Assembly (NCBI RefSeq): GCF_000165425.1
Contig: NW_001799003.1
Coordinates: forward strand, 176,246-240,245
Direction of reading: 5' to 3'
Length of the DNA: 64,000 nt
DNA from: Paramecium tetraurelia
Taxonomy: Eukaryota; Ciliophora; Oligohymenophorea; Peniculida; Parameciidae
The position numbers were made by a program, and so were the translations under genes. Of this stretch, positions 24,801 through 64,000 are shown one piece after another; position 1 is the stretch's first letter; the number at the start of each line of letters is the position of its first letter. The notes under the pieces are model-generated. The model had not been told where the DNA came from and searched no databases. It saw nothing but the letters and a program-made list of their open reading frames with translations.

Positions 24801-26879
24801 GATGGCAAAACTTGTGTTGATATTGGAAAGGCCTGTTCATTCTTTAAAGGAAATGATGACACATGTTTATTATTCACAGCTAATGATGGTCCATGCAAAG
24901 CAAGTTCTGTTTCAGCATCTCCTGTTGCTTGTACTTCTAGAGTTTGTTATGAAGCTCCAAACACATATACAACAGATGATTAATGTTCGAAATATCACCC
25001 ATCATGTAAAACAACAGGTAGAGGATGTAAGAGCACTGTTGGATGTGGAGAATTAACTTCTTAAGCTTCATGCACAGCAAATACATCATGTCAATGGGCA
25101 GGATAATGCAGAACTTTACCAGCTACATGTGGTGCATTGACTACATATGGTCAAGCTATTTGTACAAATACACCTTTATCAACTGGAAAGAAATGTGCTT
25201 GGTATAATGGTTCTTCTTCCAATGTTTGCAGAGATTTCGTATGCGCAGATTATGATGGATCAATTGCAACTCACAAGGATTGCAATGACAAAGATACAAC
25301 ATGTACAACTAGCGGTGCTGGTTGTGTAACCTTGGGAGTATGCTCATCCTATAGATCTAAATCTGTTTGTGAAGCTGCAAACACAACTGAAACTTCAGTT
25401 AGATGCACTTGGAATTCTACAACTGCAGCTTGTAGATAAAGATAATGTGCAGATGGAGTTTTTACCACTGATGATGCTTGCAACACATGGCTTACTGGAT
25501 GTAAAACTTCAGGAACAGCTTGTGTAGGACCAAACTTTGGATGTGATGTGTTTACAGGAAATCCTAAACTTTGTTTGAAGAATAGCGCTAAAAATCCATG
25601 TTTATATGTTAATGGAATTTGCTATGATTATGACAATTGTACAGATGTTAGTTCTTCAACTTACTCATTCTGCTAATCCTTCTCTAAATAATGTGTGCCA
25701 ACAAATACAACTTGCAGAGCTATTACTCAATGCGATAAATATGAAGATATCAACTCATGCACCATTGGTATTAATAATACTGTATGTGGATGGCTACCTG
25801 AAAATAAATGCAAAGAATACACAGTATGCAGTGATGCAGCAGGTACTGTCTTATCAGCTTGTACCAGTTGGGGTTCTACATGTGTTTCAGATGGAACCAA
25901 ATGTGTCGATAAAGGAACTTGTGCTTCATATTTAACCACTTAAGCTTGTGATAATGCAGGTACTGATGGATCATGTTAATGGACTGGAACTGCTTGCAGA
26001 TTGAGAGAATGTACAGATAAGGTTGCTACAACTGATGCTGAATGTTTAGCTTATACTGTTAAGAGTGGAATCTGTACAACTGATGGAGCTAAATGTGTTC
26101 CTAGAGCTACATGTTCTTCATATTTAACTGAAGCAGCTTGCACAATCGGATAAGATGGAATTCCATGTGTTTATGATTTACCAGTTGGTGCTACTACAGG
26201 AACTAAATCATGTAGACCTAAGGAATGCACAGACATCAAAGGAACTACTAATGATGCTTGTGTATCAATGATTCCAAACAAGGCTTGTGTTTCTAATGGA
26301 GTTAATTGTGTTAAATAAGATACATGTGCCAATTATAAGAATAGATTATCATGCAAAGCAGGAGGTTCAGATGGAAAATGCGCATTTACTCCAGCACCAA
26401 CTACTGCAGATCCAAATAATGGAACATGTGTATCATTCAAATCATGTGAAAATGCCAATAGTGATTAAGATGCTTGTGTTACTAAACCAAAAGCATGCAA
26501 ATGGTAATCAACTACAACTGGAACTACCACTACTACTAAATGTTCATCAATGGATTGCCCTGGAGTTGCTTCTGGTACAACTTGCAACCCATTCCAAAGT
26601 TTCGATGGAACTTCAAGCACAATTTGTGTTTTGGTCAATAATGTATGTTCAGTTAGCGATCCATCAACCCTTACAGCAGAATAATGCTATAAACCAACAA
26701 CTGTTTACACATACACTTGGAATGAATCCACTAATAAATGTGTTTCATGCAAAGCTCCAACTAATAATAACAATAACTCAACCAATCCAAACACTACAGA
26801 CCCAGACACTAATACTGATGATAATGGATACATCTTAGGTGTTACAATTCCATTGGCTATATTGGGAATCTTTGTTTGA
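18864..26879 (+). CDS. Surface (immobilisation) antigen, copy 1, intact
   Basis: One uninterrupted frame of 2671 residues without introns. Residues about 1-17 are a signal peptide (MQIKYLLLISLLLAVTK). The body is built almost wholly of cysteine-spaced units with frequent Thr, Ala, Gly and Ser (motifs such as CSSYDGT, TGCKTSGTACV, GKCRNKTC), the periodicity of Paramecium surface antigens. A central zone (about 22.6-23.4 kb) has tandem 40-residue units. The end has an Asn/Thr-rich spacer and a hydrophobic tail (GYILGVTIPLAILGIFV), fitting a GPI-anchor signal, so the protein should coat cell and cilia. Length matches known antigens of about 250-300 kDa. A 14-codon stretch near 24.15 kb reads in a shifted frame (see findings). 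In Paramecium usually one antigen is expressed at a time; nothing here shows whether this one is. Confidence 0.93.
22560..23400 (+). repeat. Central tandem repeats of antigen copy 1
   Basis: Six to seven units of about 120 bases (about 40 residues) follow each other. They share the pattern C...S.LPS.G.L.(Y/F)C..R....G..CSW..G..C. Units differ by substitutions and small length changes. Neighbouring parts of the gene are only loosely repetitive, so this block was probably made by recent unit duplication. The matching block in copy 2 is at 35830-36690, and copy 3 has lost part of it. Confidence 0.75.
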
Positions 26880-27060: not shown

Positions 27061-27497
27061 TTACTATCCAAATTAACTTTGAGTTCAAGGTTAATCCATT
27101 CATATTTTGATATAATTATACAAAAAGATCAGCAGTTTTGTAACGGAATCATTCTAAATTATACTAAATATAATAAAACATTAACAAGCCAAATTTATTT
27201 TAGCCTATTATTTCTATATACAACTATTACTACTTAGTAAAACTATGAATTGTTATGATTATTAGAAATAAAATAATTATTATAGCTACTTTATTGTCGA
27301 AATAGTAAGTTTATTTATGATATTTTATATTATAGTTAAAATAAAAATAAATTAATCTCAAATGATAGTGGATTTGTAAACTGTTTAAAAGGTTGCTGCC
27401 AGGAATGAAATTTGATTATTGATTAAGTAATATTATTAAATTTAATAAAGAATACAAAGCTATATCTATTAATTAATATAAGAATACTGGATCTCTA
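27061..27497. other. Intergenic, nothing seen
   Basis: AT-rich spacer between the antigen 3' flank and the decayed TPR copy. No frame or repeat that I can support. Confidence 0.4.
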
Positions 27498-28150
27498 AAA
27501 TGATGCAATCATATAGATTGATAAAAAATGACGATAGCTTCTAAAAATGACAATTCTTAATACACAAAGGGTGTAAAATCATATATATCTGTATTAGCTG
27601 AACGTATAAAGCCATTATAAATTAGTCTTTTTATATATCTGGTTTATAATCACAATGAAGAAATTGTATATGAGAAAAACCCTTGTCTGTTTATTCAAAA
27701 CAACTCTATTCTCCATCTACAAAGGTATAAATTATTGATATACAAATAAGCAGATAGTTTAAATTAAATATCATTATAATAATTGAATATATGTGATTGA
27801 CAGCAACAATAATGTAATTCTCTTGGCTTATAAAGTATTATCTATTAGTTTAGAGCATTTTAAGTAGTTATATACAAAAGATACTTTTTATTCTATTTTA
27901 GGATAATCATTAGCAACGATGCATAGATATGATAATGCAATTTAGATTTTAGATCAAGTATTGAAAACAATCAAATAAGTGCTAATCTCTTGTTTGGAAA
28001 GGTTACAAACAATTCGAGTTATTTAGGCGACTGTCTAAATCAAGTGGTTTGTTTCAGTTCTATAAAATTATTATACAATAAATACCAAGCAAATGGCTTA
28101 TATATAAGGCTATTTTGATGAATCAAAATTTTCCATATGTTCAAAATCAG
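27498..28150 (+). pseudogene. Decayed copy of the TPR gene at 59-61 kb
   Basis: Several stretches match the intact TPR gene. 27498-27610 corresponds to the unit and intron around 60177-60285, and 27880-28015 to 60755-60910 (MHRYDNAIQILDQVL is readable in both). Frames are broken and units between are lost or scrambled, so no full protein can be made. The copy lacks the 27-base intron-like insert found at 60792-60818 of the intact gene. It lies just before a decayed copy of the vWA gene, in the same order and orientation as the intact pair. Confidence 0.75.
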
Positions 28151-28439
28151 ATAGGGAAATAAATGTGTTGATGTAACTGGATCTGTAAATTAACAAAAGA
28201 AATAGTAATAATGAATCAAATGATAATTTGAAAATAGTAATGATCATCAACATTAGTTATTAAAATAATTTTCATCATCTCTTATTTTGTCAATAAATTT
28301 TCTAATTATTGTATTTGAAATTATTAGAGAACTTGCAGTTGACAATTGAATATATGCAAAACAGGAATTAAAATAAAGTGCTAAAAAACTCTAAAGTAAA
28401 ATTTTGTATAATTACAATTTTTATATTAAAAGTATAACT

Positions 28440-30250
28440 CCATTAGAATTAATTAATAGAAGAGCAGATTAAAGCGCAAAAAATCATCTTAGAAATAGTT
28501 ATATTATTTGAAGATTGGTTGAGTGATTACTATCAATATGCCCAGAGAAAATATAGAGTAAAAATAAAGTCTGCAATTTTATGCATCCAAGATGATTTGT
28601 CGGAATTTTTACTAGCAATTAAGTAGTAACTATTAGAAATTTTTCCTAATAGTATTTCAAAGATGCTCTAAATGATATCAATTGATGGAGTTTTTATTAT
28701 TAATCTATGCCCAGAGTCTGATTTCAAAAACAGCAATTGCTACTATCTACGCAGAGTTTGGGTATCAAAGAGAAAATATTTGCATTAAAATACTTACAAA
28801 GTATTGATCTTGTAAATGGGAAAGTGAAAAAATTAAAAGCATATTGATTTAGAAGAACTCTGATAATAGGTGTCGAAGAAATATGAGTATAACATTTTAA
28901 GTCCTGAGACACTAATAGACTTTCATAGAATATATAATTCTTTAGAAAAAAAAATACTGCCTCAAGAACTTCAAAGGTATTGTGATTACAAAAGACCGAG
29001 TCTTAAATTTCATATAGATTAGGAGAAAGTTAAATATGTATCAGCTGAATAGTTTAAAAGAAAAAAATTGAAGCCTTTATTCGCAGTTAAAGGCCAGAGT
29101 TAGAAAAAATGGATACCAAGTCATGTACAAAGTTGTAATTGCTTTTCTAAAAATAAATTTAAAAAAATCATAACATGATGTCTAAAAAGCAAAATTTTGG
29201 ACGTTGTATTAATAATGGATTTCACTTTTAGTATTTTTCCTTGGATTAATCAAGCAAAAGAAAGTATATTAGCAATAATCGATATTTTTAATAAAGATGT
29301 CTCATAAACATAAATTAAAATTGCTTTTGTTGAATATAGAGGTTTTAAGATGAGAAGGATTTTTAATATCATGGTTTTATGACGGATGTTTAATTACCAA
29401 AATCATTTATACTCTCTAAGCTAATGGTGGTGATGATGAAGCAGAAGATATTGAAGGCGAAATTGTGCAAGTATTAATTTAAATTTTCGAACCACCGTAA
29501 TGTATACTTTATTTTCTAGAATAAAGATTTTTACTCATTATCTAACATTACTATTAAAAATAGTCTTCAGAAAGGATTTCTAATAATACTAATTTCATTG
29601 ATAAAGAAAAATGAAAATTATTCCGCTTTTAGTCATTTTACAAATAGAGACCTAGTGATTTCTGATTTTTAGGGAAACTAGAGGTCCTTTCAGATCCACT
29701 TATACATCCATTTTAGAAAATTTAACATTTGAAGGATGAAACAAACATTCAAAATTTAGGAATTGAAACATTTTTCCAGAGTTAGTTTAATGATAGAGTC
29801 TAAAGAAATTAAGTTCATGAAGAGTCTCCTAAAATTGATCATTTCTATAGCTGAAATAACTTAACATTCAGAATGTGAATGTAGTTTTTAATGTTTGTGG
29901 TGATATTTTCTAAATTATTTTTTATCATTACGATGGTTAAATTGATGATGCCTATACTTACCAAAATGTCTATAGTTTTATGAATTGACTGAAATTTGTG
30001 AATGCTGTGGTAATGAATTAAAATTTATTATAAAAAGTGTATTAAATTAAACATTAGATTTAAAAATATGTGAAGAGTGTTAGAGAGATTACTTAGATTA
30101 GAGATGTAATCAAAGTGCATAAATTTTATAAAAGCAAGTCTTTTTCGTGAAAAATTTTATAAAAGAAATATGTTTCTACTATTCATCATAATCTGGCAGA
30201 AGAAAAGTAAGATAAATTTAATGACACTGATGGAGAATCCAAATATTTAT
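28440..30250 (+). pseudogene. Decayed copy of the CCCH/vWA gene at 62-64 kb
   Basis: 28500-29170 matches the Cys/His-rich N-terminal part of the gene at 62248 (shared text ATCAATATGCCCAGAGAA). 29190-29440 matches its vWA domain: the frame reads VLIMDFTFSIFPWINQAKES where the intact gene has FIMDCTGSMDPWINQARES. The metal-site motif is therefore mutated and the frame breaks soon after. 29500-30250 shows further coding-like debris that may match sequence beyond the right edge of the window. No intact product expected. Confidence 0.7.
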
Positions 30251-32124: not shown

Positions 32125-35100
32125 ATGCAAATCAAATATTTGCTTTTGATAAGTCTTCTGCTTACAATAACTCAGTAAGTGACAGTGACTAAAAATGATA
32201 CCTGTGATGATTGTACATAATTCAAATCTTCCTCTGATTGTAAATCATTTGGATGTACCTGGACGGAGAAAACAACCACAACCCCAGGATCCTGTGCCAA
32301 AACTACTACACCACCACCTATTGCTATTACAAGATATTGTGAAACAATAGAGACAACAAATTGTGCTAAGACATTTGGATGTGCCTTAGTTGAAGGAAAA
32401 TGCACTCATTTCACAGGATGTTCAGCTTATGTCAAAACTACACACTCAGACTGCTAAGCCATATCTTACATGTGTATTACTAATGGAACAACATGCACAA
32501 ATGCACTTGAATGTGTTGGATATACTAAAGAATAATGTGAAACTACCCCTAGCTTGAAGAGCCCATACAAATGTAAACTTGATGGAGAAACATGTAGAGA
32601 CTATAAATGTATTGAGGCTGATTCATCACTTACAACTGATTTAGCCTGCTCAACTTGGTTATTAGGTTGTAGATCAACAGGCGCTGGTTGTATTGATTTA
32701 GTACCACCATGTGCTAGTTATTAAGGTACTTCAGAAACATGCCCAAAGATGAAGGGATCAGATGGAAATTGTGAATTTAATGCAGATGGTAATGTTTGTA
32801 AAGCAAGAGTATGCACAGGTGCAGATACTGGACTTAACACTAATGAGGCTTGTGCTTAATACTAAGTTGGATGTGTAACAACAGGAAAGGGATGTATTGC
32901 AACAAGAGGAGCTTGTTCAACTTATGATGGAAATGCTTCAACTTGTATTGGATATATTGGTACAGATGGAGAATGTGCTGGAGATGCTACAGGTACTAAA
33001 TGCAGAGCTAGATTATGTAGTGAAAAAACTGCAACTACTGATGCTGAGTGTGGAACTTGGAAGACTGGATGCAAATCAAATGGAAAATAATGTGTTGATT
33101 CATTAAGTGCTTGTAGCTCATATGATGGAACAACCACTACATGTGCTGGTTTGAAAGGATCAGATGGTTAATTGCAAAGGAACTTCAACAACAACAGCTA
33201 AATGTGCCTTAAAAGATTGTGTGACTGATAGTAATGACACATTTAAAACATAAGCTCAATGTGAAACTATTTAATCAAACTGTAAAAACAACAGGAAAAG
33301 GATGTGTGGCAACATTAGCTGCATGTTCTTCATATTCTTATACAGATGATGGAACATCTTGTAATTCATGGTATGGATCAGATGGTAGATGTAAACCTGG
33401 AACAGCTGGAAAGTGTGCAGCTAGAGTTTGTACTGAAGCTTTAACATCATTAACTACAAACAAATAATGTGATGATTACAAGAGTGGATGTGTAACCACT
33501 GGAGCTGGATGTGTTTCAACAACTGTTTGCTAAGATACTGTTAAATAAGTTACTTGTGAAGGAACATCTAATTTGTGGATGGAATTCAATCTGTGTTTCA
33601 AAGACTAGTTGTGGTTAATTATTGACCAAATCTATTTGTGAAAGTGTCAAGATAAACAATAAGCCATGTAAATGGGATACAAGCACATGCAGAAGTGCAA
33701 GATGTGATGATTTTACAGCCACAGATGATAATACTTGCAATACCTTACTTGAAAATTGTGTTACTAATGGTACGAAATGTGTTGATGGTACTAATTGTGC
33801 TGCTTAATTTAAAGGAACATAATAAGCATGCTAAGCCTTTAAAGCCAAATGTACTAACGATACTAATGCAGCTGCAACTGTTGCCTGTAAAGCAAGAACA
33901 TGTGATGATTCATATCTCACTTACGATAATGATCAAGATTGTGGTAATTATTTTGACAGGTTGTGTGACAAAGGGATCTGGTTGTATTATTGACACAGCT
34001 GTATGTTCAAGTTATTCTGGTACTCCAGAACAATGTGATAAATTTAAAGGAAATAAGACTACTAGATGTTGGAATACCAGTGCTTCTGGTGCTTGTGTTG
34101 ATAAATAATGTACATAGGCTACTAGCATGGGAGATGACACAGCATGTGAATCATTTTTAACAGGATGTTTATATGATGGCAATGGAAGTTGTGTAGCTAA
34201 AAGTGCTGCATGCACAGCTTATACAGGTACTGCCATTACTTGCTTAAACTTTAAAGGAAGCAATTAAGCTAATCCATGCTTCCAAGGTGTTGGAGGAAAG
34301 TGCAGAAATAAAACATGTGGTGACGATACAACTAGTACAAGTGATGGAGATTGCAATACATTTTTACCAGATTGTGTTACTAAGGGAACTGGATGTATTG
34401 AAAAGACCTCTTTATGCCCTGCATATCAAGGAACAACTGATAAATGTTTAACATTTACTGGAAAATCAGGAGCTGATAAATGCACAAGATTTGGAAGCCT
34501 GTGTATCAAAAGCTACGACCTGCGCTTCAAAAACAGGAATAGCTGGAAATGATGATTGTTTATCATATCACGCTGATTGCAGATTTAAATTTGGAGACAC
34601 AATTTGCATGCAAAGTTAAACTGCTTGTACAAGTTATACATTGACTGGTACTGATGATGCTGCAAAGTAGACTTATTGTAATTCAATTACAACATCATCA
34701 GCTGGTTTATGTAGTTATAGTACAGGTACAACAGGCACATGTTCTCCTAGAGCATGCAATCTATGGGTGAGTACATTAACTAATATTACATGGTGAAAAT
34801 TATAATGGAACAGCTTACATGTAAATTAAATGGTGCTTCTTATTGTTATACTCCTGTAGCCTCATGCGCTTCATACACAATACCAACAAGCATTACAGAT
34901 AATTCAGCTAAATTAGCATGGTGTAATGCAATGTTCACAAATGCAGTTACCGCAACTAAGTGTTCATTTGATTCAGCCACTCCAACTACATGCTCCAATA
35001 TAGATAGTTGTGAAGAGATCATTTCTCCTACCAGTGCTGCTGATTGTAATAAAAAATTAAATGATGGACAATGCTAATTTGTTAACAACAAATGTATTAC

Positions 35101-38100
35101 TACTAAAAATGCATGTACTGGTTATTTATTAACTGGAATTACTACAGGTTAAGCTACTTATTGTTCTGCTTTGAAATCAGATAATTCAGGAACTGTTAAA
35201 AAATGTTCATATATTTCTGGAACTTCTACAACTACTTGTGTTGATGAGGTAGTAGCAACAGTTGCCAATCCAGCTGCTATCACTGTTGGAGCTTGTAATA
35301 CAATTTCATCACCAACTTCATAAGCAGATTGTAATTTAGGAACTGGAAGTTGTAAATATTATTCAGGAGCTTGTTATGCTAGGGTTGCATGTGCAAGTTA
35401 TACTGTTGTTGGTGCAGATGCAGCTGCTAAGCAAAACTTTTGTTAGAATATGTATGATAATACAGCAGATGAATATTGCTCTTATAATGCTGGAGCTTGT
35501 GCTGCTGGTAAAACTGCTTGTACTGATTATTCTACTTTAGCTGGGGCAGATGATGCTGCTAAAACATTAGAATGTTCTAAACTCAGAATAAAAACAGGAA
35601 GTGCTTGCGGCTTCACTGCATCAGGAACTGCATGTGCAGTTCCAGCCGATGCTGCTGCTTCATGCACACTTGTAACATCTGATATAGCTGCTGATGCGGA
35701 TTGCGCCTTAAGAACAATATTAGGATGCAAGAAACATGCTACTAATCCTGCTTGTATTGCAAATGATGCATGTACTGATGTTACTCCTACTGGAACTACA
35801 GATGATGCGAAGACCACTAGTTGCTAAGCTAATATTGGTCCTGATTCTAAATATTGTACATTTACATCTGGTGGTGCAAAGTGTGTAGCTGCTTAAAGTG
35901 CATGTTCAGGTTATTCAAGTCTTCCAAGTGATGATACTAAATTAGCTTTTTGTCAATTAAGAATTAATGAGAAAGGATAAAGATGTACATGGGTTACCGC
36001 TGCTACAGCTTGTTCAGATCCTTCAGCTACATGTGTGAGCTACACTGGTCTAAGTGGTACTGATATACTAACACAATGTTAAGCTAAAAATGATTTGGCT
36101 GGAGTTAAATGTTCATGGAATATAGGTACTACTGCATGTATCCCTGCTCCAAAAACCTGTGCTGGTTGGAATAGTCTTCCAACTTCAGGATAATTAGAAT
36201 TTTGTTAAGCCAGAATTAAATCAGATGGTTTAAGATGTTCATGGGTTAGCGGTACTACATGTACAGATGCTCAGGCTGCTTGTACATCATTAACTGGTCT
36301 TCCAGCCTAAGGGGAATTAGCTTATTGTTAACTAAGACTAAAACAAGATGGAGTGAAATGTTCATGGAGTAGTGGTGCTACCTGTTAGGATTAGCCAACA
36401 GCATGTTCAAACTGGAGTACTCTTCCATCATCAGAATAATTAGAATTTTGTTAGGCTAGAAGTAACGCAGCCGGAAATAGATGTTCATTTGTTGCAGCTG
36501 CTACTGCATGTTCTGATGCTCAAGCTGCTTGTACTGGATATAGTACACTACCTTCATCAGGATAATTAGCATTTTGTTAAGCAAGAGTTTAATAAGATGG
36601 AACTAAATGTTCATGGACTGCTGGAGGAACAGCTTGCAGAGCTTATTCATGTGAAGATACAGCATCTCCTTAATCATAAGCTGATTGCGATGCTACTGGC
36701 TCAGGATGCACTTATTAACCTCAACTCTAAATTTGTTATAAAAAAGAAGCAGCATGTACAAGTTATACTCCAACAGGTGCTACTGAGGCTGATAAACTTA
36801 ACTATTGTAATAATCTATTAAATTCTGCTTCTCCTGCTGTTGGATGTACTTACATCAAAGGAAAGACTAGTGTTTCAACATGTTCAGTATTAGCTGCTTG
36901 CACAGGCTATGATGTTTCAGATATAACTGCTGCAGCCGATAAATTAGCTGCTTGTTAAGGTGCAATACCCTCTACTGGTTCATGTACATACTTTTCAGGA
37001 AATACATGCGTTGCTGTTGCAGCTTGCTCTACATATACTGGATATACTGGATCAGATGTAGTAGGTGATTGTGCAAAATAAAAAGATGATACTACTAAAT
37101 TATTATGTTTTGGATCTGGTACAGCATGTGCTGCCGCAACTTGTGAAAATGTTACAGGAGCAACAAGTCTTGATGATTGTAAGAAATACGCCAATGGTTG
37201 TATATACTATAATTCTAAATGTTATACTTTATCAGCAACTTGTGCATACTCTACTGGAGGAACTAATGCAGTTTCATTTTGTAATAATCTAAAAAACACT
37301 GGTGGTGATTACTGTACAGCTGATGCTGATACTGATGCTAATTGCAAAGACAGAACATGTACTGATACTGCAACAAATAGTTTCTAAACTCATGATGAAT
37401 GTAAGACTTATCATTCAACATGCAAATCAGACGGCTAAGGTTGTATCCTTGCTTCAAAGACATGTACTTAATAAAGTGGATATCTTAGCTTTTGTGAATG
37501 GGCATTAGATACTAACAACAAATCAACTTGTGCCAAAGGAACGGCAGATACTAATAGTGCTGCCTGTACAAAGTTAGCTTGTGAGTTGAATGTTACTGCA
37601 ACAAGTGATTCAGAATGCCAATAATTCAATTCTGATTGTTTGAATAAAGGTTATGGTTGTATTCATAAAACAGAGCCTTGTACCTCTTACTATGGTACAA
37701 AAACATCGTGCTAGGCATTTACAGGAAATAGTAAGAAATGCTATGGAGATTCTGCTACTACTACGAAAGCTGCTTGCAGAGATAGAAGATGCAGCGATTT
37801 GGCTACAGCTACCAGTGATGCCGACTGTGAAAATTTCTTATCAGGTTGTTTATTCAATGGAGTTGGATGTGTAGACAAAAGTGCTGCTTGTAGTGCATAT
37901 AGGGGAAACTAAGATACTTGCTCAGGATTTAAGGGAAGTAATGGAACTAAATATTGTTGGGGACCCAGTGCTACAACTGTTGGCAATTGTGCAGATAGAA
38001 AGTGTTCAGATAAATCTGGTAGCACTACCGATACAGAATGTTAAACTTTCTTGCCTCCTATTGCTCCATCCAAAGTATAATTATGTATCACTGATGGTAC

Positions 38101-40172
38101 AAATTGTGTTGATATTGGAAAGGCCTGTTCATTCTTTAGAGGAGATGATGCTAAGTGCTCCTCCTTCACAGCTAATGATGGTCCATGCAAAGCAAGTTCA
38201 GTTTCAGCATCTGCTGTTGCTTGTACTCCTAGAGTTTGCTATGAAGCTCCAAATACATATACAACAGATGATTAATGTTCCAAGTATCACCCATCATGTA
38301 AAACAACTGGCAGAGGATGTAAGAGCTCTGTTGGATGTGGGGAATTAACTTCTTAAGCTTCATGCACAGCAAATACATCATGTCAATGGGCAGGATAATG
38401 CAGAACTTTAACAACTACATGTGGTGCATTGACTACCTAAGGTCAAACTATTTGTACGAATACACCATTATCAAATGGAAAGAAATGTGCTTGGTACAAT
38501 GGTCCTTCTTCCAATGTTTGTAGAGATTTCACATGTGCAGATTATGATGGATCTATTGCAACTCACAAAGATTGCTAGGACAAAGATACCACATGCACTA
38601 CTACAGGGGCTGGTTGTATAACCTTAGGAGTATGCTCATCTTATAGATCTAAATCTATCTGTGAAGCTGCAAATACAACTGAAACTTCGGTAAGATGTAC
38701 ATGGAATTCTACAACTGCAGCTTGTAGATAAAGGTCTTGTGCAGATGGAGTGTTTACCACTGATGAAGCTTGCAACACATGGCTTACTGGATGTAAAACT
38801 TCAGGAACAGCTTGTGTAGGACCAAACTTTGGATGTGATGTGTTTACAGGAAATCCTAAACTCTGTTTGAAGAATAGTGCTGGAAACCCATGTTTATATG
38901 TTAATGGAATTTGCTATGATTATGACAATTGCACAGATGTTAGTTCTTCAACTTACTCATTCTGCTAATCCTTCTCTAAATAATGTGTTCCAACAAATAC
39001 TACTTGCAGAGCCATAACTCAATGCGATAAATATGAATATATTAACTCATGCACAATTGGTGTTAATAATACTGTATGTGGATGGTTACCTGAAGGTAAA
39101 TGCAAAGAATACACAGTGTGCAGTGATGCTACTGGTACTGACTTATCAGCTTGTACCAGTTGGGGTTCTACCTGTGTTTCAGATGGAACCAAATGCGTCG
39201 ATAAAGGAACTTGTGCTTCATATTTAACCACTTAAGCTTGTGATAATGCAGGTACTGATGGATCTTGTTAATGGACTGGAACTGCTTGCAGATTGAGAGA
39301 ATGTACAGATAAAGTTGCTACAACTGATGCTGAATGTTTAGCTTATACTGTTAAGAGTGGAGTCTGTACAACTGATGGAGCTAAATGTGTTCCTAGAGCT
39401 ACATGTTCTTCTTATTTAACTGAAGCAGCTTGCACAATTGGATAAGATGGAATTCCATGTGTTTATGATTTACCAGTTGGTGCTACTACAGGAACTAAAT
39501 CATGTAGACCTAAGGAATGCACTGATATCAAAGGAACTACTAATGATGCTTGTGTATCAATGATTCCAAATAAGGCTTGTGTTTCTAATGGAGTTAATTG
39601 TGTTAAATAAGATACATGTGCCAATTATAAGAATAAATTATCATGCAAAGCAGGAGGTTCAGATGGAAAATGCGCATTTACTCCAGCACCAACTGTTGCA
39701 GATCCAAATAATGGAACATGTGTATCATTCAAATCATGTGAAAATGCCAATAGTGATTAAGATGCTTGCAACAGTAAACCAAAAGCTTGCAAATGGTAAT
39801 CAACTACAACTGGAACTACCACTACTACTAAATGTTCACCAATGGATTGCCCAGGAGTTGCTTCTGGTACAACTTGCAACCCATTCCAAAGTTTCGATGG
39901 AACTTCAAGCACCATTTTGTGTTTTGGTCAATAATGTATGTTCAGTTAGCGATCCATCAACCCTTACAGCAGAATAATGCTATAAACCAACAACTGTTTA
40001 CACATACACTTGGAATGAATCCACTAATAAATGTGTTTCATGCAAAGCTCCAACTAATAATAACAATAACTCAACCAATCCAAACACTACAGACCCAGGT
40101 ACTAATACTGACGATAATGGATACATCTTAGGTGTTACAATTCCATTGGCTATATTGGGAATCTTTGTTTGA
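32125..40172 (+). pseudogene. Surface antigen copy 2, full length but frameshifted
   Basis: Aligned by eye to copy 1, this copy keeps the start, signal peptide (MQIKYLLLISLLLTITQ), body, Asn-rich spacer and hydrophobic tail, in the same order and close to the same length. It differs by eight single-base insertions: near 33167, 33285, 33572, 33952, 34491, 34792, 34816 and 39915. The frame is lost after the first, and the frame used at the end is not that of the start. In-frame length differences also occur, such as a 9-base loss near 34080. Between 34.8 and 39.9 kb the frame is continuous. It is either a recent pseudogene or a low-quality assembled stretch. The 33.1-34.8 kb cluster of insertions stands out. 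Confidence 0.85.
35830..36690 (+). repeat. Central tandem repeats of antigen copy 2
   Basis: Same approximately 120-base units as at 22560-23400 of copy 1, with substitutions and a few unit-internal length differences. They encode the C...LPS...CSW...C pattern. Confidence 0.7.
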
Positions 40173-40352: not shown

Positions 40353-40604
40353 NNNNNNNNNNNNNNNNNNNNNNNNNNNNNNNNNNNNNNNNNNNNNNNN
40401 NNNNNNNNNNNNNNNNNNNNNNNNNNNNNNNNNNNNNNNNNNNNNNNNNNNNNNNNNNNNNNNNNNNNNNNNNNNNNNNNNNNNNNNNNNNNNNNNNNNN
40501 NNNNNNNNNNNNNNNNNNNNNNNNNNNNNNNNNNNNNNNNNNNNNNNNNNNNNNNNNNNNNNNNNNNNNNNNNNNNNNNNNNNNNNNNNNNNNNNNNNNN
40601 NNNN
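40353..40604. other. Assembly gap of 252 N
   Basis: Run of undetermined bases. It sits exactly where the duplicated antigen block should end, as expected when repeats confuse assembly. Real length unknown. Confidence 1.
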
Positions 40605-49905: not shown

Positions 49906-52900
49906 CATCCAGCAGAAGCAGAAATTTACCTACCATTGCAATAGTTAAGTTTATCATCCTCAGTAGTACTCGTTTGGGTGTAACTTGGACATGCTGTTTG
50001 TGGAATAACCAAGTTAATTTTGGGGTGAATAAGAACATCCTGTTCCATTAAAATCTTAATCAACTTATGATTAAGGAGATACATTGTCTAGAAATGAATA
50101 ATATCTGCAATTTGTTCCACTCGTCCATAAACATTTAGTTCCAACTTATAAAATTCTGGCTAAACAAAATGCTAATTATACTGTTGATGGAACAATCAAT
50201 CCACTCAAGCAGCCTGAGCATCTGTACATGTAGTACCGCTAACCCATGAACATCTTAAACCATCTGATTTAATCCTGGCTTAACAAAATTCTAATTATCC
50301 TGAAGGATCTGAGCAAGCTGTGGCAGGGGTAACCCATGTACATCTTTATCCTTTCTCATTAATTTTTAATTGGCAAAAGGCTAATTTAGTATCATCGCTT
50401 GGAAGACTTGAATAACCTGAACATGCACTTTAAGCAGCTACACACTTTGCATCACCAGATGTAAATGTACAATATTTAGAATCAGGACCAATATTAGCTT
50501 AGCAACTCGTGGTCTTCGCATCATCTGTAGTTCCAGTAGGTGTAACATCAGTACATGCATCATTTGCAATACAAGCATTATTAGTAGCGTGTTTCTTGCA
50601 TCCTAATATTGTTCTTAAGGCGCAATCCGCATCAGCAGCTATATCAGATGTTACAAGTGTGCATGAAGCAGCATTATCAGCTGGAGCTGCACATGCAGTT
50701 CCTCCATTAGTGAAGCCGCAAGCACTTCCTGTTTTATTCTGAGTTTAGAACATTCTAATGTCTTAGCAGCATCATCTGCCCCAACTAAACCAGTATATTC
50801 AGTACAAGCAGTTTTACCAGCAGCACAAGCTCCAGCAGTTCCCAGATTTCTGATCTCAAGCCAGAACAATAGGTAGCTTAACCTGTAATAATACCAGTTT
50901 ATATATAACCAGTGCATACATTTTTAGTAGTAATACATATGTTATTATGAAATTAGCAGTCTCCATCATCTAATCTTTTATTACATTAAGCAGCACTGGT
51001 AGGAGAAATGATCTCTTCGTATGTATCTATAGTGGAACATGCTGTTGTGCTTTCACCTGAATCATATGAACACTAAGTAGGAATAGTTATATTTTTGAAC
51101 CTTGAATTACACCATTCTAGTTTAGCTGAACTCTCTTTAATGGTAGTTGGTATTGTGTGTGATGCAAGCAGCTTAAGTTTGGATACAGAATTGTATCTCC
51201 AAATTTAAATCTGCAATTAGCATGATATAATAAACATTCATCATTCCCAGCCACTGACGTTTTTGTACCGCATGTCGTAGTTTGATACATGCATTTATCT
51301 GCTACTGATTTTTCAGTATAATTTAAACATTTATCAGTTGTTCCTGGATATGCAGACCATAAAGAGGTCTTATCAATACATCCAATTTCCTTTGTAACAT
51401 ATTAATCAGGTATAAATGTATTGCAATCTGAATCACTTAAACTTATCACATTGTCTTGGAGTACCAGAAAAACTTGAACATAAAGCTCTTTCACTAATAC
51501 AACTAGTTCCTTATGTCACACAGCCTTACATTAGATTATCATAAGTGAGATATGAATCATCACAGGTTCTTGCTATACAAGCAGCAGAGTATCAATTGTG
51601 CGTTTGGCTTTAAAGGCTTGGCAAGCATATTATGTTCCTTCAAATTAAGCAGCACAATCAGCATCATCGACACATTTTCTACCATTATTAACACAGTATA
51701 ATCACCACATCTTGCATTTCTGCATTTACTTGTATCCAATTTACATAGTAAACTGTTTGTCTTCACACTTTACAAATAGATTTAGCCAATAAGTAACTAC
51801 AATTAGTCGTACAGATTGAATTCCATCCACAATTAGATGTTCCTTCACAAGTAACTTATTTAACAGTATCTTAGCAAACAGTTGTTGAAACACATCCAAC
51901 TCCAGTGGTAACACATCCACTCTTGTAATCATCACAATATTTGTTTGTAGTTAATGATGTTAAAGCTTCAGTACAAACTCTAGCTGCACACTTTCCAGCT
52001 GTTCCAGGTTTACATCTACCATCTGATCCATACCATGAATTACAAGATGTTCCATCATCTGTATAAGAATATGATGAACATGCAGCTAATGTTGCCACAC
52101 ATCCTTTTCCTGTTGTTTTACAATATGATTAAATTTTCTGACATTCAGCATCTGTTTTAATAGTTTCCTTTCCATCCAACACACAATCTTTTAAGGCACA
52201 CTTAGCTGTTGTTGAAGTTCCTTTGCAATTACCATCTGATTCTATCAAGCCAAGACATGTAGTTGTTGTTCCATCATATGAGCTACAAGCACCTAATAAG
52301 TCAACATATTATTTTCCATTTGATTTGTATCCAGTCTTCCAAGTACCACACTCAGCATCAGTTGTTGAAGCATTTCCATCATAAGTTGAGCAAGCTCCTC
52401 TTATTGCAATATATCCCTTTCCCGTAATTGATTAATCAGCACCTGTACATAATCTTGCTCTAAAATTATTACTTCCATCTGGATTCAATTCGTAATTTCC
52501 ATCTGATCCCTTCATCTTTGGGTATGTTTCTGAAGTACCTTAATAACTAGCACATAGAGTTATTGAATCAATACAACCAGCACCTGTTGTTTTACAATCT
52601 GATAACCAAGTTGAGCAGGCTACATCAGTTGTAAGTGAAGAATCAGCTTCAGTACATATGTAGTCTCTACATGTTTCTCCTTTAAGTTTGTGTTTAATAT
52701 CAATTGAACTTGTCGATACACTTGTATGGACTCCTTAAGCTACAGATAGTTTCACATTAATCTTTAGTATATCCAACACATTCAAGTTCATCTGTTCTAT
52801 TTGTTATACACATGTAGATTTGGTTTAGCAATCTGAATGTGTAGTTTTGACATAAGCTGAATATCCTGTGAAATGTGTGCATTTTCCATCAACTAAAGCA

Positions 52901-53146
52901 CATCCAAAGGTCTGAGCACAACTTGTAGTCTCTATTTTTAACAATATGATGTAGAAGTAACAACAGGTGTTGTAGATTTGGCACAAGATTCTGCTTTTTG
53001 TGGCTGTTTTCTCTGTCCAAGTGCATCTAAATTTAGTTGCTTTACAATCTGAGGATGAATTGAATTAAGTGCAATCATCACATTTATGTATTTTAGTCAC
53101 TGTCACTTACATAGTTATTGTAAACAGAAGACTTATTAATTTGCAT
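49906..53146 (-). pseudogene. Surface antigen copy 3, inverted and 3'-truncated
   Basis: The reverse complement follows antigen copy 1 from its ATG (53144-53146) to the position equal to about 23.57 kb of copy 1, then homology stops at 49906. Large internal parts are lost, including part of the central repeats, so 4.7 kb of gene is reduced to 3.2 kb. The signal peptide has lost about 15 bases (only MQI then broken text), and many frameshifts follow. Some stretches stay readable, such as the cysteine units around 51.9-52.1 kb. At one site it carries ACATCTAATTGT where copy 2 has one T more, which shows that the copy 2 base was inserted. Confidence 0.88.
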
Positions 53147-54573
53147 TTTTATTTAGTAAATTAAATATTAAAGGATTTTTTTTTTGATTATTAAATAGAT
53201 AAGGTTTTGATTTTTTTTATTATCTCATTTTTTTTATTTATTTTATCTTAATTCTCATAAGCAATTTTATTATTATCTATTAATTGCTTGATATTTTGAG
53301 AATTACAATTGAGAATCATTCAATGGATGATTGCATTCTAGATTGGAAATGCTTACAATTTTATTCATCCAAATACAGGAAAGTTTATTATTATTTTCTT
53401 TAGAACTAATATATATACTATAAACAATATAAATATTATTTCAAATGCTTCTATTTCACGAAAATTTAAGAAATTGTTGATGGAATGGACAAGTCTGAAA
53501 AATTATGGCTAATAGAAGAGTCATCAGAAAGTGTATCTATACTAATTGATATCAGCTTATAAGTTGTTGATTTAGGAAAATTTGTAGGGAGATTTAAAAA
53601 AAGGAGAGTTGTTATAAGTAGGAGATAAAAATGTTGAAATGAAGTATTTAGAATAATTTACAATATACAAAAATTGACTTGTGTCTTTCAGATCACAAAT
53701 AGTCCAATGAGATAGTCATCAAAATAGGTCGGATAATTACAATATTTGGTTTTGTTTTGATTTTTTCTCTTTGAACAAAAAGGAAATTTAAGAACTTGGA
53801 ACAAAAATGAACGTTTTATGATTACAATTAATTATTTTCTTAAAACTCTTGAATAGTACCATATTTTAATTATGGTAAGTACTGTTTATTGGAGATTTAA
53901 AATATTTAAACACCAAACTCATGAAAATTGTAATTATGATTTTTATGTCTATATAAGAACTAATAAATTAAGTATAGATTTATTCTTAAGTTGAATCAGA
54001 TTTGCATGTGTTTTATTATTACATTATTATTAAATTAGTTGATTTGAATATGAAGATTTACATCTATTTTAAATATATCAAAACAAGCATAATCTTAGCA
54101 TATCTAACAAAAAATCAAAATGCTTAATTGGCAGGAATTTAATTCCTCTAATAATATAGAAGATTGTAAACATTTTTATTTATTCGGTGTTAATTCATAT
54201 CATTATTACAAAAGTTATTTGTTTGAGATTAACAAGGAGTAGAGCATGTTTTGAATTAGCAAACTTAGCATTTATGATCTTATTTTAAATATATCTATAA
54301 ATTTTATAAAATTGGTGCGATGAATATAGAGGAATAGAATCTCTTTCAAAAATGTTAAATGATAAAATGATGCATAATGTAAATTAAGAATTGAAACATA
54401 GGACTATCTTTCAGTTTGATTTAGATATAGGTTTAAAAATTCTATTTAAGTGAATCTTTAAATCGCCATATAAATTAAAATGTTAACTTGAACATGAAAA
54501 GAGGTTTCAATAAAAATAGGAAAATTAATTGAATTAAATTATATGTACACAAAAACATTGATGTTATCACTCA
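53147..54573. other. Intergenic with one weak ORF
   Basis: About 1.4 kb of AT-rich sequence. The first about 25 bases match the upstream block of the other antigen copies. A plus-strand ORF at 53485-53637 (51 codons, starting MDKSEKLWLIEESSES) is too short and isolated to call a gene. Otherwise nothing seen. Confidence 0.4.
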
Positions 54574-59339: not shown

Positions 59340-61061
59340 ATGAATTCGATTGGAGAATTTGCAATGAAATGTTCTAAAGAAAATCATGATTATGCTTCTT
59401 TGACTTGTTTAAATAAAACATGTGAGTCTAGTAGAATTTATTGTGACTAATGCCTTAGAAATGGAGATCACATAGATCACATTAATGATCAATGGAATTT
59501 GTCAAGATTAATTTAGGTTTTTAAGAGTATTGAGAAAAAAAGTAAAACATTAATTTCAGATTTATGTTTGATGAATGAAGTAATAAATCAACTATTCACT
59601 AAATTAAATTAAAAGATAAGAAAAAAATTTCAATATTCTTAAGAAAGAATATAAGGGTAGGATACAAAACAATTAAATTAAATTTTGGATGAGATTATTA
59701 AATATGATGAATTTTAAAAAGAGTTATTAGAGGAACTTCATCACTATTCTGACAATATGATTATGTATTTAACAAGATAAATCACAGAATTGAAACTAGA
59801 TAAATTAAGTGATTATTAATTAGATTTATAAGATATAGAAGAGGTTGAATCTTTACATGAAAGTGGTAATAAATCATTAAATTAGGTTATCAATTATATT
59901 ATAAAGATAATAAATGTAAGGCAGCAATTAAAATAATAGATGATGCATTACTCATCAATCCAAAACATCTGAATTCATTACGTACAAAAGGTATAAAATC
60001 AGACATTAATGTATTAGCATATTGTTTATAAAGACTTGGTAATTACCATGATGCAATTGTATTTGCAGAAAAAGCTTTGTTAATTGAATCAAAACATGTC
60101 AAATCTTTATTTATAAAAGGTATAAAATAATATTAATAATAATAAGCGGAATGTTTAAGAATGCTTGGTCGCTTCAATGATGCAATTATATGGATTGACA
60201 AAGCTTTATCAATAGATTCTAAAAATATCAATTCTTTATATACAAAAGGTGGAAAATTTCAATATCTGTATTAGCTGAATGTTTATTTATGATTGATAAT
60301 TACAAGGAAGCAATTCTATGGGCAGATAAAACCTTGTCTATTGATTCAAAGCATCTCAATTGTTTATTTACAAAAGGTATACATCGCATGTATATGAATA
60401 AGCTTATAGTTTATATATGATTGATAACTACAATGAAGCAATTCTCCGGGCCGATAAAGCATTATCTATTGATCCCAAGCATGTCAATTCTTTATTTACT
60501 AAAAGTATAAAATAAAACAAAAATTTAGCTGAATGTTTACAAAGGCTTGGTAATTATAATGATGCAATTTTCTGGGCAGATAAAACTTTGTTGATCGATT
60601 CTAAACATGTCAATTCTTTATTTACTAAAGGTATATCATCAGGCAATATGGAAAGCTGAATGTTTAAGAAGGCTTGGTAACTATAGTGAGGCAATTCTAT
60701 GGGCCGACAAAGCATTATCGATTGATTCAAAGCATTTCAAGTCGTTATTTATAAAAGATATTATTTTATTCTATTTTAGGAGAATCATCATGTTCTAAGA
60801 GATGATATAAAAATTTAGCAATGATGCATAGATATGACAATGCAATTTAGATTTTAGATCAAGTATTGGAAAACAATCCAAATCATTATTAATCTCTAGT
60901 TTGGAAAGGTTAAAAATATTTCTAGTTATTAGGAGGCTGTTTACAATCATTAGCAAATTACTAACAAGCTATATGTCTTTATAGTAAGGCTATTTTGATC
61001 AATCCAAATTTGTGCATAAGTTCAAAATCAAAAATGTATATTAAGATATTTATGTAGCTGA
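59340..61061 (+). CDS. B-box zinc finger and tandem TPR protein, one repeat per exon
   Basis: The start holds Cys/His spacing of a B-box: CSKENH...CLNKTC...YCDQC...H...H (about residues 10-45). About 140 residues of coiled coil follow. Then come nine TPR units of 34 residues (GNYHDAIVFAEKALLIESKH and the like), each ending in a KG where the next intron starts. Introns lie at 59866-59885, 59991-60017, 60120-60146, 60249-60274, 60377-60402, 60505-60528, 60631-60655, a suspected 60758-60779, 60792-60818 and 60909-60932. A last one at 61036-61057 leads to TGA 61059-61061. The suspected intron at 60758 begins AT instead of GT; if unspliced, the protein ends early. Partners unknown; TPRs bind protein. 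Confidence 0.72.
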
Positions 61062-61698: not shown

Positions 61699-62247
61699 AG
61701 AATCCATTTAATGCAATTGTATAACAGAATTCTTTGGCAATATATATTCAAAAATTCTGAAAAATAATTATTGATTAATAGTTATCATATATTATCAATA
61801 AATAGTAAAAATTACCTAACTATTATAATGACAAGAGAATTTTAGCAGAATGATTTATACTGTTGGTTTTTTATGGGGGATTTTATGTGTATAACAGAAA
61901 CATCGACAAGACATTCCTTAATAAATAATTATTAATGAAATTTATCTAATAGAAGTATTTTGGGTTAATTAAATGCTGTAAAAATAATGTTAAAGTCTTT
62001 GATAATATTTGTAAATTATATGAATTAATTCATTTTTATGATCTGCATTGAAATGATATATGTAATATAATTCTTAAAGATAGCAAAGAAATAAAGCATG
62101 ATACTAAGTTGGGATGAACATCAATTTTTCAGTCGAGATTAATAATAATTTTAACTGCAATTTTGTATTAAAAATTCCTAATTCTATTAGAATTTAAATT
62201 AGAGAAGGGAAGATTAAAATGAACAAAATCAATTTTGAAATATTTAA
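61699..62247. other. Intergenic, nothing seen
   Basis: AT-rich spacer before the vWA gene. An upstream exon of that gene could lie near 62150-62220, but no frame joins clearly. Confidence 0.4.
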
Positions 62248-64000
62248 ATGATTCAAAAGTTATTTGAGTCATTGCTATCAATATGCCCAGAGAATATAAA
62301 ATGTAAAAATAATGGATGTAATCTAATGCATCCAAGATGCTTTGCAGGAATTTGTATTCACAATTTAAATGGTAATTGCAAGAAACCTTGCCCTAAGAAT
62401 TTAATTCATATAAGCAAGGGTAGTTTGAAAGAGAAACTGTAAATGCATTCAATTAATGGAGTTTTCGTTATTAATCTATGCCCAACATTTGATTGTAAAA
62501 ATAGCAATTGCTATTATCTGCACAGAGATTGGATATAAAAGAGAAATATTTGCATTAAATATTTAAAAAACAATGATGACTGTGAGGGTGAATGTGAAAA
62601 AAATTAAAAGCATGTTGATTGGCAATAACTACAATCAGAAGTATTTAAAGAATATGAGTATATGAATTTAAGTCCAGAAACGATGATAGTTGTCGATAAA
62701 ATATATTATGATTTAGAGAAATATTGCATTAAGTACTTCAAAGGTATTTGTGATTATAAAGGAATATGTCCCAAATTTCATGTTGATTGGGAGAAAGTTA
62801 AATATGTATCAGCTAAATAGTTTGAAAGAAAAAAATTGGTACCATGCACTCGTAGTTAAAAGCCTGAGGTATAAAGAATGGATAGCAAGTCATTTACAAA
62901 ATTGGAATTGCTTTTCGAAAAATAAAATCTTAAAAAATTATAACATGATATCAGAGCAAGCAACATTTTGGATATTGTATTTATAATGGATTGTACTGGA
63001 AGCATGGATCCTTGGATTAATCAAGCAAGAGAAAGCATATCAGAAATAATCAATATTTTTAACAAAGCAGTATCATAAACATAAATTAGAATTGCTTTTG
63101 TTGGCTATCGAGATTTTAAAGACGAGAAACATATTTAATATCATGATTTTACAACGGATGTCGAATTAATTAAATCATATATAAGTACTGTCTAAGCTGA
63201 CGGTGGTGATGATGATGCAGAAGACCTAGCAGGGGGAATTTCGCAAGTTTTAAAATTGGACTTTTCGAAGCACTCTTAAAGTATTCTTTGCACATTTTTG
63301 ATATGTGACGCTCCAACACATGGCAAATAATATCATGATTATTCAGTTTCAGATAAACATAACGACTGTATTTAAGAGGGTTCTTTGGAAAATCTTATGT
63401 AAATTTTGGATTAAGAAGAGACTCCTAATAATTATTTCTTTTGTTGTAAACTAAACGAAACTACAAATCAGATGTTTGAGATTATGAAATAAAACTTCAA
63501 GAATTTAGAAATGAGTTAATTAGAAACAAAAGATTTTACAAATTATGTATCTATATCCATGATTAAGTCTTTTCAATCCTCCTGTCTAATTCAAAAGAAC
63601 ATTTCATAAACATAAGGGTTTCAAGCACATTTTATTTGGCATAAAGTAATTGAACCAGTTGAATGCACACAAACGCACTCAGCTAAACCTCACTTTTTCT
63701 AATTTTTTTAACTTAAATGCGCAAATAACAAATTGGCGGCGCTACAATTTTAGCAATAGCAATGCATGAGCAATCATTGCGCTCAAATGCTAATGCCAAG
63801 GCTTCCTATATCTTCGCAGCATTTGATATTAGCACTCCTTTGCCCATTATTATGGAGCTTCCAAAGGGCGCTGCAGATCAGTATAAGGGCGGCTAAGCTG
63901 ATTAAGCTATTATTTAATAGGCGCAAGTTTCATCTCATGTTAGATATAATTAGCCTTTAATAGCAAAACAACTAAGTAGTGCTTAAGCTATTAAGCTAAT
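62248..64000 (+). CDS. CCCH-type Cys/His protein with vWA domain, probably continuing into an alpha-kinase; cut by window edge
   Basis: Residues about 12-190 hold several Cys/His clusters of CCCH-like spacing (CKNNGCNLMHP, CPTFDCKNSNCYYLH, CDYKGICPKFH). A vWA domain begins near residue 238: FIMDCTGSMDPWINQARES carries a DxTxS metal site, then RIAFVGYRDF and GGDDDAEDLAGGI follow. The vWA frame stays open to the window end. From about 63690, however, a different frame gives the protein-like text (FAAFDISTPLPIIMELPKGA, QADQAIIQQAQVSSH), which resembles the alpha-kinase N-lobe found after vWA in VwkA-type proteins. I found no intron that joins the frames, so a frameshift or missed intron lies near 63650-63730. 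A decayed copy is at 28.4-30.3 kb. Confidence 0.7.

What the first reader, a model, noticed from the sequence alone, without database searches (positions are those of the whole stretch)
59866..60932. Each TPR repeat is exactly one 102-base exon, with all introns in the same phase
Between successive short introns the exons 60018-60119, 60147-60248, 60275-60376, 60403-60504, 60529-60630 and 60656-60757 are all 102 bases, that is 34 codons, one TPR each. Every intron starts after the first base of the codon after the lysine in ...K(G). This is a protein-repeat array growing by exon-plus-intron duplication, in a genome whose introns are only 24-27 bases long. The unit of duplication must have been about 128 bases. 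Such regular exon-per-repeat structure allows repeats to be gained, lost or skipped without breaking the frame.
Basis: seen in the sequence. Interest (0 to 1): 0.82.

Follow-up and report, generated by a model that had tools for sequence, protein, structure and literature searches.

The report
One-repeat exons in Paramecium TPR gene
A Paramecium gene is built from repeated blocks, each made of one tiny intron and one 102-base exon, and a decayed sister copy nearby differs by two whole blocks; this is a clear but not unprecedented way for a repeat protein to grow.

Summary
Six consecutive 102-nt exons, separated by 24-27-nt GT..AG introns in phase 1, lie where stated; TRF finds a 128-nt unit. 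The window is Paramecium: ciliate code, Paramecium surface-antigen ORF.

Corrections. The exon border falls at TPR residue 8, inside the first helix, not between repeats. Exon skipping was not observed in P. tetraurelia RNA-seq (PMC5663052), so 'skipped' is unlikely. The array continues past 60757 with two more, damaged units after a junction with AT instead of GT.

New evidence. A decayed copy at 27.47-28.23 kb has five of the units in the same order but two fewer blocks; its third unit matches unit 5 in front and unit 7 behind (20 of 23 diagnostic sites; 36 of 20000 shuffles as good). Whole blocks do come and go. Four units also carry a 27-28-nt insertion compatible with one shared site; there three are TA-flanked, as germline-eliminated sequences (IESs) are. 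Their identity is unproven.

Closest precedent: 90-bp phase-2 LRR exon arrays of Tetrahymena (PMC6564038). TPR expansion carrying IESs is noted for P. tetraurelia (PMC3464196). New member of a known kind.

The parts
59364..59865 (+). N-terminal exon (start codon inferred; the gene finder instead begins at 58992 with a further 21-nt intron): Cys/His-rich, B-box-like stretch then a mainly charged stretch; ends in phase 1
   Evidence: ORF, spliced translation; among the 25 of 29 Pfam families shown none is for the Cys/His stretch; B-box likeness is recalled
59866..59885 (+). Intron 0, 20 nt, GTA..TAG, phase 1
   Evidence: sequence; chosen by the gene finder
59886..59990 (+). TPR exon 1, 105 nt (35 codons)
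59991..60017 (+). Intron 1, 27 nt GTA..TAG, phase 1, no in-frame stop if retained
60018..60119 (+). TPR exon 2, 102 nt
60120..60146 (+). Intron 2, 27 nt GTA..AAG, phase 1, no in-frame stop if retained
60147..60248 (+). TPR exon 3, 102 nt (pairs with decayed unit pA)
60249..60274 (+). Intron 3, 26 nt GTG..TAG, phase 1
60275..60376 (+). TPR exon 4, 102 nt (pairs with pB)
60377..60402 (+). Intron 4, 26 nt GTA..AAG, phase 1
60403..60504 (+). TPR exon 5, 102 nt (front part matches pC)
60505..60528 (+). Intron 5, 24 nt GTA..TAG, phase 1 (split codon begins with A), no in-frame stop if retained
60529..60630 (+). TPR exon 6, 102 nt (no counterpart in the decayed copy)
60631..60655 (+). Intron 6, 25 nt GTA..AAG, phase 1
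60656..60757 (+). TPR exon 7, 102 nt (back part matches pC)
60758..60779 (+). Junction at the next intron site: 22 nt, AT..TAG, no GT donor; the decayed copy also has AT here (21 nt)
60780..60908 (+). TPR unit 8: 102 nt of unit sequence plus a 27-nt insertion (60788-60814 or 60789-60815 by best match; also readable as a GT..TAG segment 60792-60818)
60909..60932 (+). Intron 8, 24 nt GTT..TAG
60933..61035 (+). TPR unit 9, 103 nt as written (one base longer than 102)
61036..61057 (+). Candidate last intron, 22 nt GTA..TAG
27470..28231 (+). Decayed copy of the array: units pA, pB, pC, pD, pE, with intron-like segments 27571-27597, 27725-27750, 28002-28026 and the AT..AG junction 27881-27901
27607..27633 (+). 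27-nt insertion in pB, TA-flanked in this placement (one of six equally good)
27760..27787 (+). 28-nt insertion in pC, TA-flanked in this placement (one of three equally good)
28036..28062 (+). 27-nt insertion in pE, TA-flanked in this placement (one of seven equally good)
62152..63289 (+). Part of the downstream gene with a vWA domain that has a decayed counterpart at 28409-29510
   Evidence: Pfam VWA_4 3.7e-11; 75.8% identity over 1145 columns

Best explanation
This is a Paramecium gene whose TPR domain grew by tandem duplication of one block: a 24-27-nt intron plus a 102-nt exon, about 128 nt together. One ancestral intron at TPR residue 8 was copied with each repeat, so every exon runs from residue 8 of one TPR to residue 7 of the next and the introns have the same phase. 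Whole blocks are gained and lost by unequal homologous exchange, which can break anywhere in the block, including within the exon. The introns are then spliced out one by one as ordinary Paramecium mini-introns. The product up to 60757 is an N-terminal Cys/His-rich region followed by seven TPR exons, probably a binding scaffold. Shown: the array, phases, block homology, and the two-block difference from a decayed copy. Inferred: splicing, function, and the direction of the two-block change (loss in the copy is favoured because its unit pC is a 5/7 hybrid).
For: Six 102-nt exons, six GT..AG phase-1 introns, 0 of 406 in-frame stops. TRF unit 128 nt. Intron interiors more alike than shuffles, 0 of 2000 as high, and than six control introns, 3 of 924 labelings as high. 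Pfam TPR_2 8.3e-30 and ANAPC3 7.9e-67 on the spliced product; best solved-structure match an engineered TPR protein, 2.6e-48. Variable columns by codon position 14, 12, 22 of 34 each (positions 1+2 against 3, p = 0.02). Decayed copy: units pair as pA-u3 (support 98-99), pD-u8 (99), pE-u9 (99-100), pB-u4 (56-61), pC-u5 (55-62) in two trees; net 253-nt gap in the gapped alignment, i.e. two blocks (summed from the blocks); pC switches from u5-like to u7-like: 20 of 23 diagnostic sites fit one change-point, 36 of 20000 shuffles as good (an earlier alignment gave 19 of 22 and 78 of 20000), and the junction behind pC is the AT..AG one found behind u7. Another TPR gene in the window (905-2023) has its TPRs in one uninterrupted ORF.
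Against: No RNA evidence. My codon-usage gene finder did not choose introns 1-6; it accepted the 20-nt intron 0, read through introns 1 and 2 and stopped at 60292. Three of six introns are multiples of three without a stop, a class depleted in Paramecium (PMC11334263 passage). Three of six acceptors are AAG, not TAG, although this is within the genome-wide rate (TAG in 70.5-76.5% by expression class, PMC9612004 Table 1 passage; binomial p = 0.22 with 28% non-TAG). The control introns are predictions: 6 of 16, picked by me for a GTA start and 22-25 nt. The pB-u4 and pC-u5 pairings have weak support. Over its last 38 nt pC is as close to u4 (28) as to u7 (29), u5 being 24, so the u7 origin of the back half also rests on the junction behind it. 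The intron between pB and pC scored best with intron 2 (12), not intron 4 (9) as the unit order predicts.
Confidence: 0.86

Rival explanations
1. The 24-27-nt gaps are not introns but IESs, cut out of DNA between TA dinucleotides, seen here because the window is germline DNA.
For: P. tetraurelia IESs peak at 26-28 bp (PMC3464196 passage); GTA..TAG introns contain TA near both ends.
Against: 6 of 6 begin GT and end AG; 3 of 6 end AAG with no TA at the right end; two are 24 and 25 nt, below the 26-bp minimum given in PMC3464196; a neighbouring 2671-aa surface-antigen ORF is uninterrupted and, aligned with its 93% identical relative, shows 26 indels of which the largest internal one is 9 nt, so the window looks macronuclear.
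Confidence: 0.03
2. Introns were inserted independently at the same TPR position in each repeat (a proto-splice site) after an intronless array had formed.
For: The repeats themselves are similar, so each offers the same insertion context.
Against: Intron interiors share sequence beyond their ends (0 of 2000 shuffles; 3 of 924 labelings), and 3 of 4 intron-site segments of the decayed copy score best with the positionally expected one in the gene (pA-B with i3, pC-D with i7, pD-E with i8; pB-C scored best with i2, 12, then the expected i4, 9).
Confidence: 0.06
3. The locus is a pseudogene: introns and repeats are relics and no seven-TPR protein is made.
For: Past 60757 there is an AT..AG junction, an insertion with a TGA in the continued TPR frame, and an extra base at the end of unit 9. 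The neighbouring copy is clearly decayed.
Against: 1219 nt of spliced coding sequence to 60757 without a stop or frame break. In 5 of 5 paired units the copy's branch is longer than the gene's: in the tree restricted to the part behind the insertion site 0.234/0.036, 0.257/0.037, 0.289/0.066, 0.116/0.018, 0.183/0.154; the tree, with insertions left in for pB, pC and pE, shows the same direction.
Confidence: 0.25
4. The four 27-28-nt insertions in u8, pB, pC and pE are IESs carried by the repeat block and retained in the macronucleus; the alternative is that they are extra introns or unrelated insertions.
For: Best single-gap fits give 27 (pB), 28 (pC), 27 (pE) and 27 nt (u8), and all four tie-sets include the site after exon nt 9; random placement shares a site in 115 of 200000 trials; at that site three are TA-flanked; size equals the IES peak; the 1.1-kb vWA duplicate has 20 indels, the largest 18 nt. 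The u8 insertion has CA on one side, and mutation of a flanking TA was the cause in almost all cases of mutant non-excised IESs (PMC3464196 passage).
Against: End-consensus fit is mixed (fractions of 1528 random TA..TA segments scoring as high: pB 0.03, pC 0.60, pE 0.13). No likeness among the insertions (0.31 of shuffles as good). For u8 a 27-nt GT..TAG placement fits nearly as well (45 against 47 of 50), and pB contains a 22-nt GTA..TAG segment. The three TA-flanked ones would have to have failed to excise with both TAs intact. TA at this site is part of a conserved Leu codon, so its presence is expected anyway.
Confidence: 0.5

Closest known systems
90-bp-exon LRR gene arrays of Tetrahymena (Xiong 2019, PMC6564038)
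   Same: A ciliate repeat protein in which each repeat is one exon of fixed length, with introns in one phase, explained by exon-plus-intron duplication and unequal exchange
   Different: LRR not TPR, 90 not 102 bp, phase 2 not 1, thousands of genes; here one gene and one decayed copy were seen. The paper states that P. tetraurelia LRR genes lack the 90-bp peak
TPR/WD40 repeat expansions carrying IESs in P. tetraurelia (Arnaiz 2012, PMC3464196)
   Same: TPR repeats in Paramecium that expand or recombine, with small extra elements copied along (23 cases of IESs in 3 to 6 identical copies)
   Different: One sentence about IES copies; exon or intron structure of the repeats is not described in what I read (section 9 and passages)
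One repeat unit per exon in human tandem-repeat proteins (Schaper 2014, PMC3995336, passages)
   Same: Repeat unit equals exon; unit change by whole-exon duplication
   Different: Human genes; here introns are about 25 nt and the visible breakpoint is in an exon
Consensus TPR proteins (e.g. 9qhb, 8bu0)
   Same: 34-residue helical repeat, aligned without gaps over up to 229 residues
   Different: Engineered; relevant only to the fold and register

Membership tests
Tetratricopeptide repeat (TPR) | 34-residue repeat matching TPR profiles above cut-off | tested here: met
   TPR_2 100.9 bits (cut-off 27), TPR_1 79.4 (27.8), TPR_8 56.4 (25.7); 34-residue period
   TPR_1 and TPR_2 align residues 368-398 to positions 3-33; the last exon starts at residue 373, i.e. 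position 8 (same register in the alignments)
Paramecium short spliceosomal introns | 20-35 nt, GT..AG, mostly GTA..TAG | tested here: met
   24-27 nt, 6 of 6 GT..AG; 5 of 6 GTA, 3 of 6 TAG
Paramecium short spliceosomal introns | Removed from mRNA | not testable with these tools
   no RNA-seq held
Tetrahymena 90-bp LRR exon arrays | LRR repeats, 90-bp exons, phase-2 introns | tested here: not met
   TPR, 102 nt, phase 1; works like it, not a member
Array of exon-per-repeat units grown by duplication | Introns at one homologous site and phase, shared intron ancestry | tested here: met
Array of exon-per-repeat units grown by duplication | Whole-unit copy-number change between relatives | tested here: met
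   two-unit difference, hybrid unit pC; one relative only
Paramecium IES (for the 27-28-nt insertions) | Flanked by TA on both sides | tested here: inconclusive
   3 of 4 (pB, pC, pE) in one of their equally good placements; u8 has CA on the left
Paramecium IES (for the 27-28-nt insertions) | Precise excision in macronuclear development | not testable with these tools
   no germline reads held
Paramecium IES (for the 27-28-nt insertions) | Weak TAYAGYNR end consensus | tested here: inconclusive
   summed scores pB 13, pC 10, pE 12 against mean 9.9, sd 1.5 of 1528 random TA..TA segments; u8 ends scored 4 and 5 of 8

The most novel reading that the evidence does not exclude
In the germline, each TPR block carries two removable pieces: a 26-28-bp IES at exon nt 10-11, cut out of DNA when the macronucleus forms, and a 24-27-nt intron, cut out of RNA. 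Both were multiplied with the repeat. The macronuclear window shows the IES only where excision failed: in unit 8 and in three units of the decayed copy. Every added repeat would then cost one more DNA excision and one more splicing event.
Probability: 0.3. Interest if true: 0.7.

Novelty: new member of a known kind. Interest (0 to 1): 0.42.

Why it matters
It shows in one locus how a genome with about two introns per gene and mean exons near 400 bp (PMC11334263 passage) can acquire a many-intron gene: one intron multiplied with a protein repeat. With introns this short, recombination must mostly hit the exons, which separates 'exon shuffling through introns' from 'repeat exchange that drags introns along'. 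If the shared insertion site is an IES site, the locus would also let one test how repeat growth multiplies DNA-level excision events.

Tried and rejected
Genome-wide count of such genes: no genome is held for the window and none could be laid. Relatives: the 406-residue spliced product found no confirmed relative in genome contigs (11 pattern matches, none confirmed by tblastn) or viral contigs (9, none); both are collections where a ciliate is not expected. Rfam at gathering threshold: 0 matches; ARAGORN with the bacterial code: 0 tRNAs. One telomere-like pattern: 2 weak matches, 17 of 100 shuffles with at least 2, so no sign of a chromosome end from that pattern.

Gene finding by codon usage was too weak to judge short exons; I used it as a source of control introns (6 of its 16).

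Structure: AlphaFold2 of a contiguous window stretch with introns 1 and 2 left in (135 residues, no alignment) gave mean pLDDT 44.9 and pTM 0.36, too poor to say whether retention is tolerated; no fold search was made.

Rejected: IES reading of the array gaps; independent intron insertion; the 27-28-nt insertions as copies of flanking DNA, of introns of the two arrays, or of each other (no score stood out from shuffles; fractions as good 0.26 to 0.97). Retained introns as harmless linkers between repeats: since the border is at TPR residue 8, retention would insert residues inside a helix; not tested further.

First alignment of pC placed its insertion at the front of the exon; I repeated the diagnostic-site count and the tree on the parts behind the shared site.

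Full report
Setting. Long open frames exist when TAA and TAG are read as Gln; one ORF (18864-26879, 2671 aa) is a Paramecium surface antigen (Pfam Paramecium_SA 2.3e-83), and introns of 20-27 nt fit that genus. No whole genome is held. The surface-antigen ORF is uninterrupted; aligned with its 93% identical relative it shows 26 indels, the largest internal one 9 nt, so there is no sign of unexcised IESs there and the window is probably macronuclear.

Observation. The introns are GT..AG, 24-27 nt, phase 1. One more phase-1 intron of 20 nt precedes a first TPR exon of 105 nt. The spliced frame from 59364 to 60757 has 0 stops in 406 codons; the other frames have 10 and 29. TRF reports 128 nt, 6.3 copies. 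The six exons are 70-82% identical; by codon position pairwise identity is 0.81, 0.85 and 0.64, as for a translated sequence. The start codon is my choice; the gene finder proposes a longer N-terminus from 58992.

Register. Pfam TPR_1 and TPR_2 place the first residue of the last exon at TPR position 8, and the alignments with consensus TPR proteins agree. Each exon therefore encodes residues 8-34 of one TPR and 1-7 of the next. The block is a circularly permuted TPR; repeat and exon have the same length but not the same borders.

A further unit (u8), a GT..AG intron (60909-60932) and another unit (u9) follow. Three things are off there: the junction before u8 has AT where the others have GT (the decayed copy has AT too, so this probably predates their split); u8 carries a 27-nt insertion; u9 has one extra base. 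Without splicing at the AT junction the frame ends at a TGA, 60835-60837. The protein may thus end shortly after the seventh TPR exon.

The decayed copy. Similarity searches within the window found a degraded array at 27.47-28.23 kb, followed by a degraded copy of part of the vWA gene that follows the intact array. Its units pair in order: pA-u3, pB-u4, pC-u5/u7, pD-u8, pE-u9. Relative to the gene, two blocks are missing: a net 253 nt, summed from the blocks. Unit pC matches u5 in front and u7 behind: of 24 sites where u5 and u7 differ, 23 match one of them, and 20 of these fit one change-point, which 36 of 20000 shuffles equalled (first version: 19 of 22, 78 of 20000). Over the last 38 nt pC is nearly as close to u4 (28) as to u7 (29), u5 being 24, but the AT..AG junction behind it is the one behind u7. 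A deletion by exchange between u5 and u7 in the copy is the simplest reading; tree support is weak for pC-u5 (55, 62) and pB-u4 (61, 56) and strong for the other three (98-100). The breakpoint is in the exon.

Are the introns duplicated too? Intron interiors score a mean 1.67 against -2.02 (sd 0.74) for shuffles, 0 of 2000 as high, and exceed comparisons with six other predicted introns (3 of 924 labelings as high, the observed one included; 6 of 16 predicted introns used). Three of four intron-site segments of the decayed copy score best with the expected partner; one (pB-C) prefers intron 2 over the expected intron 4. So the block copied most likely includes its intron.

Is anything unusual about the introns? 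TAG acceptors make up 70.5-76.5% by expression class (PMC9612004, Table 1 passage), so 3 of 6 AAG is unremarkable (p = 0.22). Three of six are translatable (multiple of three, no stop), a class that is depleted in Paramecium (PMC11334263 passage); six introns are too few to make a case. The gene does have many introns for a genus with about 2 per gene (same passage source).

Exon skipping. The P. tetraurelia RNA-seq study reports no case of exon skipping and argues that recognition of only very short introns precludes it (PMC5663052 passage). Nor do the introns confer frame safety: exchange between 102-nt repeats would keep the frame without them (inference).

Shared insertion site. A search over insertion length (0-44) and position (1-44) gave best fits of 27 nt (pB against u4), 28 (pC against u5), 27 (pE against u9) and 27 (u8 against pD), matching 36, 38, 32 and 47 of 50, with shuffled maxima of 28-29; the sets of equally good positions (6, 3, 7 and 2 positions) all include the site after exon nt 9. 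Random placement of those sets gave a shared site in 115 of 200000 trials. At that site pB, pC and pE are TA-flanked; u8 has CA on one side. In these four pairs only one partner has the insertion (u4-/pB+, u5-/pC+, u9-/pE+, u8+/pD-); for pA the front is too decayed to say. The vWA duplicate of 1.1 kb has 20 indels, the largest 18 nt. P. tetraurelia IESs peak at 26-28 bp, are flanked by TA, and TPR expansions are named as a source of IESs in 3 to 6 copies (PMC3464196, section 9 and passages). Against this, end-consensus scores are mixed, the insertions do not resemble each other, and u8 and pB can also be read as intron-like. I hold the IES reading at about even odds for these four, lower for the claim that intact units carry one in the germline.

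Literature. The Tetrahymena LRR arrays (PMC6564038: abstract, sections 9 and 25, passages) are the closest kind. Searches listed no title or abstract opening about 102-base TPR exon arrays in Paramecium; I judged the listings, not the full texts. Subscription journals and ParameciumDB were not searchable. Other papers were seen as passages (PMC5663052, PMC9612004, PMC11334263, PMC5014332, PMC3995336) or abstract and passages (PMC12862383); PMC3464196 as section 9 and passages.

Verdict. Real, well supported, and a new member of a known kind, with a useful decayed copy that shows whole-block turnover and an unexplained shared insertion site.

Noticed in passing
60789-60815; 27607-27633; 27760-27787; 28036-28062: Four 27-28-nt insertions compatible with the same site of four TPR units, three TA-flanked there; possibly retained IESs.
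   Followed up: partly
60758-60779 and 27881-27901: AT..TAG at an intron site in both the gene (22 nt) and the decayed copy (21 nt, in frame and stop-free there), suggesting an old donor loss.
   Followed up: partly
18864-26879 and 32125-40172: Two surface-antigen genes 93% identical; within the ORF the second has nine single-base insertions relative to the first and looks broken, or reflects sequencing error.
   Followed up: partly
50205-53319: Fragmentary third surface-antigen copy on the minus strand (Pfam 1.7e-05 for 51766-53319).
   Followed up: no
62152-63289 and 28409-29510: vWA-domain gene next to the TPR gene and its decayed copy next to the decayed array: the pair was probably duplicated together.
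   Followed up: partly
905-2023: A second TPR gene in the window with its TPRs in one uninterrupted ORF.
   Followed up: partly
40353-40604: Run of N (assembly gap).
   Followed up: no
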